From assembly GCF_016916835.1 (NCBI RefSeq), contig NZ_JAFFIX010000001.1, forward strand, positions 372,001-436,000: a stretch of 64,000 bases of DNA. Direction: 5' to 3'. The translations under genes and the position numbers were made by a program. The notes under the pieces are model-generated. The model was not told where the DNA came from, ran no database searches, and worked only from the letters and a program-made list of their open reading frames with translations. Positions 7,202 through 12,713 of this stretch are shown here, one piece after another (within the stretch, counting starts at the first letter, position 1; every line of letters starts with the position of its first letter). This DNA is from Actinacidiphila bryophytorum (lineage in GTDB: Bacteria > Actinomycetota > Actinomycetes > Streptomycetales > Streptomycetaceae).

Positions 7202-7274
<73 letters not shown>

Positions 7275-7285
7275 CAGGTGAGAGG

Positions 7286-8550: not shown

Positions 8551-10029
8551 ATGACACAGCCCGTGCTGAACGGCGCCACCGCGCCCGCCCACCGCCCCGC
8601 CGTCGATCCCGGCACCACGAAACCCGGCAGGGCGGGGCCGCGGCCCGGCCTGCTGCTCGCCACCATCCTCATCGGCCAGTTCATGGCCCTGCTCGACGTC
8701 TTCATCGTCAACGTCGCCGCCCCGACCATCCGCACCGACCTGGACGCCTCGGGCGCCGCACTCCAGCTGATCATCGCCGGCTACACCATCGCCTACGCGG
8801 TGCTGCTGATCACCGGGGCGCGGCTGGGCGACCTCTTCGGTCACCGCCGGCTGTTCGTCACCGGCCTCGCGCTCTTCACCGCCGCGTCGCTGGCCTGCGG
8901 ACTCGCCCAGAACACCGGTGAGCTGATCGGCTTCCGCTTCGTCCAGGGCACCGGGTCCGCGCTGATGATCCCGCAGGTGCTCAGCCTGCTCCAGCTCACC
9001 TTCAGCGGTGAGGCCAGGACCCGCGCGATGAGCGTCTACTCCGCCGTCCTGTCCTCCGGTGCCGCGCTCGGCCAGTCGCTGGGCGGCATCCTGGTCAGCG
9101 CCGACCTCTTCGGCACCGGATGGCGGCCGGTCTTCCTGGTCAACGTGCCCATCGGCGCGGTGATGCTGGTGATCGCCCCCCGGGTGCTGCCCCAGGACGG
9201 GCGGCGCGACCCCGCACGGCGCCGCGGCCTGGACCTGCCGGGCCTGACCGCGCTGGCCGCGGCTGTGACACTGCTCACGGTCCCGCTGGTGCTGGGGCAG
9301 GAGGAGGGCTGGCCGGTGTGGGGCTGGGTCTGCCTCGGGCTCAGCGTGCTGCTCTTTTGCCTGTTCATGCTGCTGGAGTCGCGGCTCGCCCGGCGCGGCG
9401 GCGCCCCGCTGGTGTCGGGGCGGGTCCTGCGGGCGCCCGGCATGCTGCGGGCCGTCATCGTGATCATGACGACCATGGCCGTCAACGCCGGCTTCCTCTT
9501 CGCGGTCGCCCTGCACCTGCAGACCGGCCTCGGCTTCAGCGCCCTGCGCACCGGGCTGACCTTCGCTGTCGCCGCGGTCTCCTTCGGCGGCGTCGGCCTC
9601 AACTGGCGGCGGCTGCCGGTGTCCTGGCGGCCCTGGCTGCCCGCGGCGGGCCTGCTGGTCGCCGCCGCGTCCTTCGCCGGCCTCGGCCTCGCGCTGCGCG
9701 GCGGCGGGGACGGCGGTGCCGCGCTCTACGTGTCCCTGCTCGCCCTCGGCGCGGGCCTCGGCCTCGGGTTCAGCCCGACCTTCACCCTGGCGCTGTCCAC
9801 GGTGGCCCCGCAGGACGCGGCCGACGCCAGCGGGCTGCTGGCCACGGTGACACAGCTGGGCCAGCTGATCGGGGTGGCCGCGCTCGGCACGCTCTTCCTC
9901 AACCGGCTCGACCTGCCCGGCGTCCACCCCTCGGCCCACGCCTTCGCGGTGACCGCCGCGGCCCTGACCGCGGTGTCCGTGGCGGGCGCGGCGGTGGCGC
10001 TGACACGGGGCCGGGGCCGTACGGCCTGA
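8551..10029 (+). CDS. MFS drug:H+ antiporter (DHA2 type)
   Basis: 492-aa inner-membrane transporter, predicted 14 helices, likely exporting small toxic molecules in exchange for protons. The N-terminal FMALLDVFIVNVAAPTIRTDL motif, the GARLGDLFGHRR loop (motif A) and the RFVQGTGSALMIPQVLSLL motif C region are classic for the DHA2 family. ATG 8551 has AGGA eight bases upstream; ATG 8545 is too close to it. It faces an XRE/MmyB regulator and converges with an Old Yellow Enzyme gene, so the three form a small detoxification cassette between two tRNA-Ala copies. Confidence 0.9.
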   Translation: MTQPVLNGATAPAHRPAVDPGTTKPGRAGPRPGLLLATILIGQFMALLDVFIVNVAAPTIRTDLDASGAALQLIIAGYTIAYAVLLITGARLGDLFGHRRLFVTGLALFTAASLACGLAQNTGELIGFRFVQGTGSALMIPQVLSLLQLTFSGEARTRAMSVYSAVLSSGAALGQSLGGILVSADLFGTGWRPVFLVNVPIGAVMLVIAPRVLPQDGRRDPARRRGLDLPGLTALAAAVTLLTVPLVLGQEEGWPVWGWVCLGLSVLLFCLFMLLESRLARRGGAPLVSGRVLRAPGMLRAVIVIMTTMAVNAGFLFAVALHLQTGLGFSALRTGLTFAVAAVSFGGVGLNWRRLPVSWRPWLPAAGLLVAAASFAGLGLALRGGGDGGAALYVSLLALGAGLGLGFSPTFTLALSTVAPQDAADASGLLATVTQLGQLIGVAALGTLFLNRLDLPGVHPSAHAFAVTAAALTAVSVAGAAVALTRGRGRTA

Positions 10030-11344: not shown

Positions 11345-11417
<73 letters not shown>

Positions 11418-11426
11418 CAGATCAGA

Positions 11427-11470
11427 AGGCGGGGCCTGACCGCATTTTTGCGGCCAGGCCCTGCCTCCTC
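11427..11470 (+). terminator. terminator after tRNA-Ala copy 2
   Basis: An 18-bp stem (11427-11444 with 11449-11466) contains one G-U pair and one A-C mismatch, with loop tttt. It occupies the same place as the terminator behind tRNA-Ala copy 1 and shares its core ggg.cctg.ccgc, supporting duplication of the tRNA unit. Confidence 0.85.
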
Positions 11471-11557
11471 TCTGCCGCGGCGAGGGGCTCCCTCAGCTTG
11501 GTCAGCTCGCCGCCCCGCCCCCCCGGGCTGGAAGAGACGGGGCAGGCGCTTAATCGG

Positions 11558-11592: not shown

Positions 11593-12324
11593 GTGCCGAA
11601 GCTGAATCAGATCATCGCAGTCGAAAAGGGCGTCAAGTCCAAGGCTCTCCAAGAGCTCACCCAGGCTCACCAGGACGTGCAGAAGCCCGCCCTGCTTGCC
11701 GGTATCTCCCGGACCTATCAGCCCAAGGACGAGGAGGGCGAGCAGTTGCCGCCCGAGTCCACGCGGGTGCAGATCAAGGCCGAGGACGCTCTGCGGACGA
11801 CCGCCGGGACGCTGACGCGGCTCTTCGACGTGACCGCGACGAAGGACTGGGCGAACCGGTCCGCGGCCGCGGACGTGGTGGTCGACGGTACGGTGCTGCT
11901 GCCCCAGGTGCCGGTCCCGTACCTGCTGTTCCTGGAGAAGCAGCTCACCGATCTGCACACCTTCGTGCGCAAGCTGCCGGTGCTCGACGCCTCCGAGTCG
12001 TGGAATCTGGACCCGTCGACGGACTCGTGGAAGACGGACCCGGTGCGGACCATCCGCACGAAGAAGGTCCCGCGCAACCACGTGAAGGCCGAGGCCACGG
12101 AGAAGCACCCGGCGCAGGTCGAGGTGTACTACGAGGACGTCCCGGTCGGTTACTGGACCACGGTGAAGTTCTCCGGCGCGCTGCCCGCCCGGCGGGTCAA
12201 CGAGCTCCTCGACCGCGTGGAGAAGCTCCAGCAGGCCGTCAAGTTCGCCCGCGAGGAGGCGAACAACACCGAGGTCACCGACCAGCGGGTCGGCGACGCG
12301 GTTTTCGGCTACCTCTTCCGGTAG
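11593..12324 (+). CDS. conserved protein of unknown function next to permuted tRNA units
   Basis: 243-aa soluble protein beginning PKLNQIIAVEKGVKSKALQEL; no signal or membrane segment. I recall close homologues in many bacteria but know no assigned function. Visible features are a charged helical N-terminus, LLFLEKQLTDLHTFVRKLPVL (about residues 113-133), a Trp-containing block, a basic RTKKVPRNHVKAEATEKHP stretch (about 155-173) and a helical tail LPARRVNELLDRVEKLQQAV. GTG 11593 appears leaderless. Two permuted tRNA-like units follow 52 bases downstream on the same strand, so a role in handling them is possible but unproven. Confidence 0.7.
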   Translation: MPKLNQIIAVEKGVKSKALQELTQAHQDVQKPALLAGISRTYQPKDEEGEQLPPESTRVQIKAEDALRTTAGTLTRLFDVTATKDWANRSAAADVVVDGTVLLPQVPVPYLLFLEKQLTDLHTFVRKLPVLDASESWNLDPSTDSWKTDPVRTIRTKKVPRNHVKAEATEKHPAQVEVYYEDVPVGYWTTVKFSGALPARRVNELLDRVEKLQQAVKFAREEANNTEVTDQRVGDAVFGYLFR

Positions 12325-12335
12325 CCGCCACATAC

Positions 12336-12359
12336 GCCCTCCGTCGCGAGGCGGAGGGT
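12336..12359 (+). promoter_or_regulatory. hairpin between the 243-aa gene and the permuted tRNAs
   Basis: ccctccg (12337-12343) pairs with cggaggg (12352-12358), plus a G-U at the base; loop of 8. No T-tract follows, so it may be an RNA stabiliser or processing signal rather than a full terminator. Confidence 0.55.
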
Positions 12360-12375
12360 GCGCGATGAGCGCAAG

Positions 12376-12508
12376 CTGAAACTGATGTTGAAGCTGATGA
12401 AGGGGTGTCAGTTGGGGGTTCGAATCCCTCTCCCCGCACCACGTGCGGGGGTGGCCCAAGCCTGGCAGAGGCGGCCCCGTGAAACTCAGATTCTCGCTCC
12501 AGTCTCAG
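12376..12508 (+). tRNA. circularly permuted tRNA-like gene 1 (3' half before 5' half; GAA anticodon in the 5' half)
   Basis: The 3' half comes first: anticodon-stem strand ggggt (12402-12406), variable gtcagtt, T stem ggggg/ccctc around ttcgaat (12419-12425), acceptor strand tccccgc (12431-12437), discriminator A and an encoded CCA (12439-12441). After a 3-base linker the 5' half follows: acceptor gcggggg (12445-12451), TG, a D arm with GCC/GGC and a GG in the loop, then anticodon-stem strand gcccc (12474-12478) and loop gTGAAAc (GAA at 12481-12483, Phe). Acceptor strands pair over 7 bp (one G-U); the anticodon strands gcccc and ggggt pair over 5 bp (one G-U). Leader 12376-12384 also pairs with trailer 12500-12508 (8 of 9). 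U8, A14, A21, U33 are all present. Expression and splicing are unproven. Confidence 0.8.
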
Positions 12509-12535
12509 TATTCGCCGCCGAACACCGGATCGACC

Positions 12536-12643
12536 GAGCGTGGGCGAACATCGACGGACGGGGGTTCAAGTCCCCCCGGCGCCTCTCTCGTGGCGCTGTA
12601 GTTCAAAGGCAGAACACGTCGATCTCAACATGACCCGCGGCTC
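12536..12643 (+). tRNA. circularly permuted tRNA-like gene 2 (CTC anticodon in the 5' half)
   Basis: The 3' half comes first: anticodon-stem strand cgacg (12552-12556), short variable gac, T stem ggggg/ccccc around ttcaagt (12565-12571), acceptor strand cggcgcc (12577-12583). After 8 bases (12584-12591) the 5' half follows: acceptor ggcgctg (12592-12598), TA, D arm gttc/gaac with loop aaaggca (12605-12611), A26, anticodon-stem strand cgtcg (12617-12621) and loop aTCTCaa (CTC at 12624-12626, Glu). Acceptor pairs over 7 bp (one G-U), anticodon stem over 5 perfect bp. Leader 12536-12544 pairs with trailer 12634-12643 (9 bp, one bulge). CCA is not encoded. The same permuted layout as unit 1 makes chance unlikely. 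Confidence 0.8.
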
Positions 12644-12680
12644 TTAAACGCCGTCGGTGTGCGCAATTGGGTGGCAAGCT

Positions 12681-12713
12681 GGAGCCCGGGAGCTGGACAT
12701 GCTCCCGGGCTCC
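12681..12713. terminator. hairpin terminator between permuted tRNA locus and MFS gene
   Basis: Perfect 13-bp stem, ggagcccgggagc (12681-12693) with 12701-12713, loop tggacat. It ends one base before the end of the convergent MFS gene and can stop transcription from both sides. Confidence 0.85.

What the first reader, a model, noticed from the sequence alone, without database searches (positions are those of the whole stretch)
12376..12508. Circularly permuted tRNA gene 1: T-arm/acceptor 3' half encoded upstream of the D-arm 5' half
Seen: the 3' half (anticodon strand ggggt, T arm, acceptor tccccgc-A-CCA) ends 3 bases before a 5' half (acceptor gcggggg, D arm, anticodon strand gcccc, loop with TGAAA). 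All acceptor and anticodon pairs form, and U8, A14, A21, U33, GG in the D loop and TTC in the T loop are in place. Flanks 12376-12384 and 12500-12508 also pair. Known: permuted tRNA genes are described in some algae and archaea, which splice them with a tRNA endonuclease; I know of no established bacterial case. Inference: this RNA is circularised and re-cut, or acts as a tRNA mimic.
Basis: partly seen in the sequence, partly recalled or inferred. Interest (0 to 1): 0.95.

Follow-up and report, generated by a model that had tools for sequence, protein, structure and literature searches.

The report
Double-headed tRNA-mimic RNA beside DUF7873
Directly after a gene of unknown function (DUF7873), in this bacterium and in many phages and other bacteria, the DNA encodes a predicted RNA with one or two (here two) tRNA-like heads whose halves are in swapped order; it likely works as a tRNA mimic partnered with that protein, not as a scrambled tRNA gene.

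Summary
At 12402-12478 a tRNA-like unit is encoded 3'-half first; a second, different one lies at 12550-12623. Both follow a DUF7873 (PF25283) gene at 11593-12324. The arrangement is conserved: 209 of 221 distinct DUF7873 loci from bacteria, named phages and IMG/VR contigs have one or two such units within 900 nt downstream, against 1 of 4,420 shuffles. Acceptor stems covary: 325 of 331 units picked blind to the acceptor pair at 6 or 7 of 7 positions; swapped partners do so in 11%. In 61 genomes a covariance model has a match beside each of the 40 DUF7873 loci, including all 35 matches of 96 bits or more. No Rfam family passes its threshold there. Topology matches bacterial Y RNA (YrlA), yet no Ro60 match was found in this genome, nor a tRNA-splicing endonuclease, and some relatives lack head 1. 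Best reading: a tandem, Y-RNA-like tRNA mimic with DUF7873 as likely protein partner, shared by phages and bacteria. Expression, binding and function are untested.

The parts
11593..12324 (+). DUF7873 gene (243 aa), likely protein partner
   Evidence: PF25283, 405 bits, covers 1-242 of 244; AlphaFold2 model mean pLDDT 94.4; no PHROGs, NCBIfam or PADLOC match
12336..12713 (+). Inferred extent of the noncoding RNA, from 5' hairpin to 3' hairpin (ends not mapped)
   Evidence: Conserved downstream of DUF7873 in related genomes; hairpins at both ends
12336..12359 (+). 5' hairpin (10 bp by folding); by eye absent in some loci such as L022 and L029
   Evidence: comparison by eye
12376..12384 (+).
   Evidence: 8 of 9 pairs with 12500-12508 in the window; conserved but covariation not above shuffles
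12402..12478 (+). tRNA-like unit 1, halves permuted (anticodon-stem strands 12402-12406 and 12474-12478)
12414..12430 (+). Unit 1 T arm (loop TTCGAAT)
   Evidence: covariation
12431..12437 (+). Unit 1 acceptor 3' strand
   Evidence: pairs 7 of 7 with 12445-12451
12438..12444 (+). Unit 1 joining loop: A73, CCA, three bases
   Evidence: loop statistics
12445..12451 (+). Unit 1 acceptor 5' strand
12452..12472 (+). Unit 1 U8, G9 and D arm (3-bp stem, 13-nt loop with A14 and GG)
12479..12549 (+). Linker between the units, with highly conserved sequence (CTCAGATTCTCGCTCCAG) and the 3' flank strand 12500-12508
   Evidence: D-arm-to-T-arm spacing 84-96 nt in 122 of 128 loci where it was measured
12550..12623 (+). 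tRNA-like unit 2, halves permuted; folds as permuted cloverleaf by minimum free energy
12560..12576 (+). Unit 2 T arm (loop TTCAAGT)
12577..12583 (+). Unit 2 acceptor 3' strand
   Evidence: pairs 7 of 7 with 12592-12598 (one G-U)
12592..12598 (+). Unit 2 acceptor 5' strand
12599..12615 (+). Unit 2 U8, A9 and D arm
12681..12713 (+). 3' hairpin (13 bp, -32.5 kcal/mol), terminator-like but without a T run
   Evidence: no site in the T-run terminator scan

Best explanation
The locus encodes a predicted noncoding RNA of about 380 nt, directly after the DUF7873 gene, with two tRNA-like domains whose 3' halves precede their 5' halves, and it likely works as a tRNA-mimicking partner RNA of the DUF7873 protein, in the manner of a bacterial Y RNA. 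Shown: the gene-RNA linkage, the permuted cloverleaf of each head and its covariation, T-loop and D-loop signature bases, acceptor stems joined by a short loop, and presence in both phages and bacteria. Inferred: one transcript carries the protein and the RNA; DUF7873 binds the conserved linker and flanks; the heads fold into tRNA elbows that attract one or more tRNA-handling host factors (as YrlA attracts PNPase and tRNA-modifying enzymes), so that the complex scaffolds, gates or sequesters them.
For: Linkage: 209 of 221 distinct loci (124 of 125 from bacterial genomes, 12 of 13 named phages, 73 of 83 IMG/VR) have at least one permuted unit in the 900 nt downstream; controls 1 of 4,420 shuffles, 6 of 221 upstream, 4 of 221 at 900-1800 nt downstream. 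Model R1: each of the 40 DUF7873 loci of 61 genomes has a match beside it, all 35 matches of 96 bits or more among them; 16 of the 40 loci were in the model's own alignment; the 24 genomes without the gene reach at most 46.4 bits. In 8 whole phage genomes the best match is beside DUF7873 in 6, and strong (70.5-106 bits) in 4: Racecar, Phendrix, NiceHouse, Pam2; of these only Phendrix was in the model's alignment. Covariation: 116 double-change cells against 31 in shuffles for unit 1, 231 against 84 for unit 2; blind acceptor test. Y-RNA likeness: Rfam YrlA aligns end to end with both units, though below threshold; R1 weakly finds RNAs upstream of the TROVE match in 7 of 28 TROVE-bearing relatives. 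No neighbour family recurs in more than 3 of 95 bacterial neighbour proteins, so protein plus RNA looks like the whole cassette there.
Against: No expression, binding or phenotype data. Nothing in the DUF7873 model or its charge says RNA binding: pI 5.6-7.8 in 8 members. The long stem expected of a Y RNA is only weakly supported: flank pairing is conserved but covariation is not above shuffles, and the unit-2 anticodon stem pairs in 57.8% of cells of the alignment used. 77 of 221 loci show one unit and 12 none by the strict detector. In two of the 8 phage genomes R1 gives no match beside DUF7873: Rhizobium phage RHph_TM21B has its weak matches (up to 33.5 bits) 4-5 kb away and Vibrio phage D505 none. 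The cassette is patchy: 7 of 396 genomes drawn across the phylum have the gene. The PNPase analogy is borrowed from YrlA and not tested.
Confidence: 0.6

Rival explanations
1. Genuine circularly permuted tRNA genes: the transcript is ligated at the anticodon side and cut at the acceptor ends to give two working tRNAs.
For: CCA follows the discriminator in 41 of 132 first units. RtcB ligase gene present.
Against: No PF01974 tRNA-splicing endonuclease match in the genome. Sequence beyond the anticodon stem is strongly conserved. Head 1 is missing by eye in several relatives. ARAGORN isotypes of rotated units vary among loci, though they depend on my arbitrary join. Two heads in tandem with different discriminators.
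Confidence: 0.05
2. A two-piece, tmRNA-like RNA: RNase P and RNase Z cut the joining loops, giving mature acceptor ends that are CCA-tailed and charged, with the rest of the RNA in place of the anticodon arm.
For: Permuted two-piece tmRNA is a known precedent (passages of PMC3978253). A73 in 110 of 132 first units and CCA in 41. The tmRNA model RF00023 does match at 12505-12577 with 24 bits, E 1.6e-6, though below its threshold of 47.
Against: Joining loops of only 4 nt in 11 of 132 first units leave little to excise; second units carry T73 or G73 in 129 of 132. No tmRNA match over threshold at the RNA in the window or in 20 loci. A tag reading frame was not looked for.
Confidence: 0.13
3. An ordinary YrlA RNA whose partner is Ro60 encoded elsewhere.
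For: Same permuted tRNA-like topology; end-to-end sub-threshold alignment to RF02553. 24 of the 37 DUF7873 genomes also have a TROVE match.
Against: 13 of 37 DUF7873 genomes, this one included, have no TROVE match. The strong R1 matches all sit beside DUF7873. Separate, weaker R1 matches sit upstream of the TROVE match in 7 relatives, and Rfam calls YrlA there in the two of these that were searched (L254, L256).
Confidence: 0.07
4. A decoy or anti-defence module: in phages the tRNA heads soak up or block host tRNA-cutting or tRNA-sensing immunity; bacteria have taken it over several times.
For: 249 IMG/VR places encode DUF7873 relatives. ARAGORN puts a tRNA near 51 of 96 phage loci, a few of these calls possibly chimeric. 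Bacterial proteins are scattered among phage ones: 9 label changes by parsimony, at least 3 forced by well-supported branches, on a quick tree. For YrlA, PMC7790460 proposes competitive inhibition of an anticodon nuclease (passages).
Against: The heads lack an anticodon loop, which many such nucleases recognise (recalled). No PADLOC match. Also kept in bacterial genomes: 37 of 61 near relatives, own included.
Confidence: 0.14
5. Decayed tandem tRNA genes: the 3' half of one tRNA next to the 5' half of the next, without function.
For: Tandem identical tRNA-Asn genes in this genome give just such a pattern and a 43-bit YrlA match.
Against: Covariation and conservation in bacteria and phages; no complete tRNA in the stretch.
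Confidence: 0.01

Closest known systems
Bacterial Y RNA (YrlA, Rfam RF02553) with Ro60/Rsr
   Same: 3'-half-first tRNA-like head with T arm, capped acceptor stem and D arm; noncoding; gene near its protein partner's gene; a phage Ro60 relative and YrlA in phages are mentioned in PMC7765460 (passages).
   Different: Two heads in one RNA, a different protein (DUF7873, 243 aa), Rfam scores of 23-33 bits against a threshold of 69, present in genomes without a TROVE match.
Circularly permuted tRNA genes of algae and archaea
   Same: 3' half encoded before 5' half; acceptor halves joined by a short stretch.
   Different: No PF01974 splicing endonuclease match in the genome, conserved flanks beyond the junction, two heads in tandem, head 1 absent in some relatives.
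Permuted two-piece tmRNA (RF04321)
   Same: Permuted bacterial RNA with a tRNA-like acceptor/T-arm part; the rest of the RNA replaces the anticodon arm.
   Different: Has a D stem, two heads, no tmRNA match over threshold at the RNA; tag frame not looked for.
GOLLD and ROOL (large phage RNAs near tRNA genes; recalled; GOLLD in mycobacterial tRNA arrays is cited in PMC9569102, passages)
   Same: Large structured RNAs among phage tRNA genes.
   Different: No match to either family over threshold in 20 loci; this RNA is linked to a protein gene and made of tRNA-like heads.

Membership tests
YrlA / bacterial Y RNA | Permuted tRNA-like effector domain (T arm, capped acceptor, D arm) | tested here: met
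YrlA / bacterial Y RNA | Rfam RF02553 score at or above 69 bits | tested here: not met
   23.3 and 25.9 bits in the window, 32.9 in L057. Ro60-side RNAs of two relatives also score below it (47.7, 41.5, 36.4), so the threshold is harsh in this genus
YrlA / bacterial Y RNA | Ro60 (TROVE) gene in the genome | tested here: not met
   no match in this genome; 13 of 37 DUF7873 genomes have none
YrlA / bacterial Y RNA | Long stem from paired 5' and 3' ends that binds Ro60 | tested here: inconclusive
   flank helix 8 of 9 in the window, covariation not above shuffles; binding not testable here
Circularly permuted tRNA gene | 3' half upstream of 5' half with full cloverleaf pairing | tested here: met
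Circularly permuted tRNA gene | tRNA-splicing endonuclease to cut a bulge-helix-bulge junction | tested here: not met
   PF01974: no match in the genome; found in 4 archaeal controls of 14
Circularly permuted tRNA gene | Mature, charged tRNA with a defined anticodon | not testable with these tools
   needs RNA data; isotypes from the rotated joins vary but depend on the join chosen
Permuted tmRNA | Match to RF00023 or RF04321 at threshold | tested here: not met
   RF00023 24.0 bits (E 1.6e-6) and 10.5 bits against 47 at the RNA; the only RF04321 hit is weak and elsewhere, 11393-11499; none over threshold at the RNA in 20 loci
Permuted tmRNA | Tag reading frame and SmpB dependence | not tested
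   -

The most novel reading that the evidence does not exclude
A third kind of bacterial tRNA-mimic ribonucleoprotein beside tmRNA-SmpB and Ro60-Y RNA: a phage-spread, two-component cassette of DUF7873 and its own double-headed permuted-tRNA RNA, taken up by bacterial genomes several times, which captures tRNA-handling machinery of the host.
Probability: 0.55. Interest if true: 0.92.

Novelty: new variant of a known kind. Interest (0 to 1): 0.85.

Why it matters
If true, a protein family without function (7,557 relatives among the 7,999 candidates scored in one capped search) gains a partner RNA and a working hypothesis, and tRNA mimicry with permuted halves is commoner in phages and Actinobacteria than Ro60-bound Y RNAs suggest. 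It would also give a named set of phages in which the role of such mimics can be tested by deletion. It further warns that 'permuted tRNA' patterns in bacteria should be tested as mimics before any claim of permuted tRNA genes.

Tried and rejected

Literature: DUF7873 is in no paper of the held library (0 papers); Y RNA with Streptomyces and Ro60, 0 papers. Other searches (listings and abstract starts seen only): 21 papers, 20 listed; 41, 25 listed; 14, all listed; 4, 3 listed; 21, 12 listed; 17, 12 listed; no listed title or abstract start describes this RNA. Passages were read in PMC8394870, PMC7790460, PMC3978253, PMC7824862, PMC7765460 and PMC9569102. Most subscription papers are not held, and Chen et al. 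2014 on YrlA could not be opened, so earlier description is not excluded.

Rows dropped: of 242 loci, L131 (245 nt downstream) and 20 loci with an identical first 300 nt were left out before counting. The 13 named-phage loci are a choice from 73 records; IMG/VR and GTDB loci are the 80 best kept of 249 and of at least 528 plus 18 and 6. In the blind test 5 of 336 units with an ordinary-order partner were set aside, and 17 of 221 loci gave no unit. Alignments A4, A5 and A6 hold 50, 47 and 44 units with joining loops of 9 nt or less, chosen from lists thinned for similarity or picked by me; long-loop units are not in them. The 12 loci without a unit by the detector include 8 (L056, L079, L126, L145, L153, L155, L162, L164) in which I see a unit with one deviating feature by eye (listing); this is not counted. 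TROVE matches in relatives cover only about 60-77 of 442 model positions, so some may not be Ro60. The tree is the quick one, the careful search was not finished. The neighbour scan used 95 of 125 proteins picked by a simple ORF rule.

Full report
What is there. The window lies in a genome of 8.05 Mb; the named proteins nearest to its DUF7873 are from Streptomyces and Kitasatospora. The gene at 11593-12324 is DUF7873 (PF25283, 405 bits). From 12402 to 12478, 77 nt after its stop codon, the sequence forms a cloverleaf in swapped order: anticodon-stem strand, T arm, acceptor 3' strand, A73-CCA, three bases, acceptor 5' strand, U8, D arm, anticodon-stem strand. The same order recurs at 12550-12623 with other letters. 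ARAGORN finds no tRNA there as it stands and one in each unit after rotation: tRNA-Phe(gaa) and an unassigned one. A strong hairpin ends the region at 12681-12713.

It is conserved and tied to DUF7873. I collected 242 DUF7873 loci: genomes related to the window's, 13 stretches of named phages out of 73 records, IMG/VR contigs and GTDB genomes. After removal of near-identical ones, 221 remained. A detector that asks for T arm, 7-bp acceptor (6 or more pairs), U8, D stem, A14 and GG found two units in 132, one in 77 and none in 12. Controls: 1 of 4,420 Markov shuffles, 6 of 221 upstream stretches, 4 of 221 stretches 900-1800 nt downstream. By source: 124 of 125 loci from bacterial genomes, 12 of 13 named-phage, 73 of 83 IMG/VR. 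Of 175 first-type units, 158 start their T arm 60-159 nt after the stop codon, and in 122 of the 128 loci where it was measured the D arm of unit 1 and the T arm of unit 2 are 84-96 nt apart. The gene is common near home (37 of 61 genomes, own included) but rare across the phylum (7 of 396 genomes).

Covariation. Units were picked again without looking at the acceptor: of 331 (in 204 loci), 316 pair 7 of 7, 9 pair 6 of 7 and 6 pair 4 or fewer. Among 159 distinct strand pairs, 153 pair at 6 or more; when partners are swapped among loci 11% do (at most 19.5% in 200 rounds). On an unfitted alignment of 50 first units, 99.1% of cells pair, with 116 double changes against 31 in shuffles. For 47 second units the figures are 86.5% and 231 against 84; the acceptor, T and D stems pair in 99-100% of cells and the anticodon stem in 57.8%. 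The units in these alignments had been chosen with the detector, so the percentages lean upward; the blind test does not. That part of the structure is open.

Specificity. A covariance model of unit 1 (R1) was run over 61 whole genomes. DUF7873 is at 40 loci in 37 of them; 16 of the 40 were in the model's alignment. Comparing coordinates, each of the 40 has an R1 match within 1 kb, and all 35 matches of 96 bits or more are among them; the divergent paralogue has 51.6 bits and four head-1-less loci (G002, G006, G012, G026) 34-42. In the 24 genomes without DUF7873 the best match is 46.4 bits, and 10 of them have any at E 0.001; most of those cover the model positions (36-107) that the tandem tRNA-Asn genes of this genome also match, and I infer the same cause. 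In 8 whole phage genomes the best R1 match lies beside DUF7873 in Racecar (101 bits), Phendrix (106), NiceHouse (102), the cyanophage Pam2 (70.5), Klebsiella phage FBKp24 (40) and Rhizobium phage RHph_Y1_11 (22); in RHph_TM21B the weak matches lie 4-5 kb away, and Vibrio phage D505 has none. Of the four strong ones only Phendrix was in the model's alignment.

What it resembles. The Rfam YrlA model aligns end to end with both units at 23.3 and 25.9 bits, far below its threshold of 69. YrlA has this topology: a stem formed by the two ends and a tRNA-like domain; in Deinococcus Y RNA tethers Ro60 to PNPase (passages of PMC8394870 and PMC7790460). Here Ro60 was not found: no TROVE match in this genome or in 13 of 37 DUF7873 genomes. 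In 7 of 28 TROVE-bearing relatives R1 also hits, at 35-43 bits, a place about 1 kb upstream of the TROVE match and on its strand (G001, G004, G015, G019, G024, G026, G034). Rfam was run on four TROVE loci: it calls YrlA below threshold in L256 (47.7 bits) and twice in L254 (41.5, 36.4), and nothing in L253 and L255. So Ro60-side Y RNAs and DUF7873-side RNAs look like separate, similar things in the same genus. No Rfam family reached its threshold at the RNA in the window or in 20 loci searched.

The protein. DUF7873 is predicted with high confidence (pLDDT 94.4, pTM 0.71): long helices and a long beta hairpin. Invariant residues in 65 members are G37, Q60, N88, K116, W137, K158, H172, G186, W188, A215, A219 and N224. 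Its near-neutral pI gives no support for RNA binding by charge alone. In 95 scanned neighbour proteins from GTDB loci no family occurs more than three times, so in bacteria the gene and the RNA appear to travel as a pair. On a quick tree of 96 proteins, the 17 bacterial ones are scattered among the 79 phage ones (9 changes; at least 3 forced by starred branches); direction of transfer is not shown.

How it most likely works. Steps shown: linkage, permuted heads, capped acceptors, elbow signature bases. Steps inferred: RNA made from the DUF7873 transcript; DUF7873 bound to the conserved linker; heads bound by tRNA-handling factors. The heads are modular: by eye L028, L032, L053, L042 and L056 lack head 1 and have a short stem there, and the detector finds only a second-type head in the Rhizobium phage L063. 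That, the missing splicing endonuclease match and the conserved flanks speak against true permuted tRNA genes. A two-piece, charged form cut by RNase P is not excluded: CCA follows the discriminator in 41 of 132 first and 31 of 132 second units, and the tmRNA model gives a sub-threshold match (24 bits, E 1.6e-6) across the linker and unit-2 T arm.

Verdict. The find is a new variant of Y-RNA-like tRNA mimics, with two heads and a different likely partner.

Noticed in passing
window 7202-7275 and 11345-11418: Two tRNA-Ala(GGC) genes with the same Rfam score (67.2 bits) and alignment lie 4.1 kb apart, the second just upstream of DUF7873.
   Followed up: no
L010 about 8845-8995 (G000 C1:526866): Two tandem tRNA-Asn genes of the same sequence; the 3' half of the first with the 5' half of the second gives a 43-bit YrlA match, a trap for Y RNA searches.
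   Followed up: yes
L254 2605-2906, L256 2715-2848: YrlA-like RNAs (36-48 bits, below the Rfam threshold) upstream of the TROVE match in two same-genus genomes; R1 hints at the like in five more (G001, G004, G015, G019, G034).
   Followed up: partly
L058 1072-1600: Gordonia phage Phendrix carries a tmRNA match (89 bits, threshold 47) inside its tRNA cluster; the record lists no feature there.
   Followed up: no
L065 3766-3845: The annotated 'tRNA-Sup-TTA' of Klebsiella phage FBKp24 lies between and partly over two R1 matches, so it may be a miscall.
   Followed up: partly
L011, L040, L044, L181 and others, 20-36 nt after the DUF7873 stop codon: ARAGORN calls a normal-order tRNA that joins the 5' hairpin region to the unit-1 3' half; probably chimeric, but an alternative fold is not excluded.
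   Followed up: partly
L047 3188-3925 and downstream: A divergent DUF7873 paralogue (38% identity) with a single permuted unit and a 49-nt joining loop, in a genome that also has a normal copy.
   Followed up: partly
G000 C11:29568-30674 (L265): RtcB RNA ligase gene elsewhere in the genome (418 bits).
   Followed up: no
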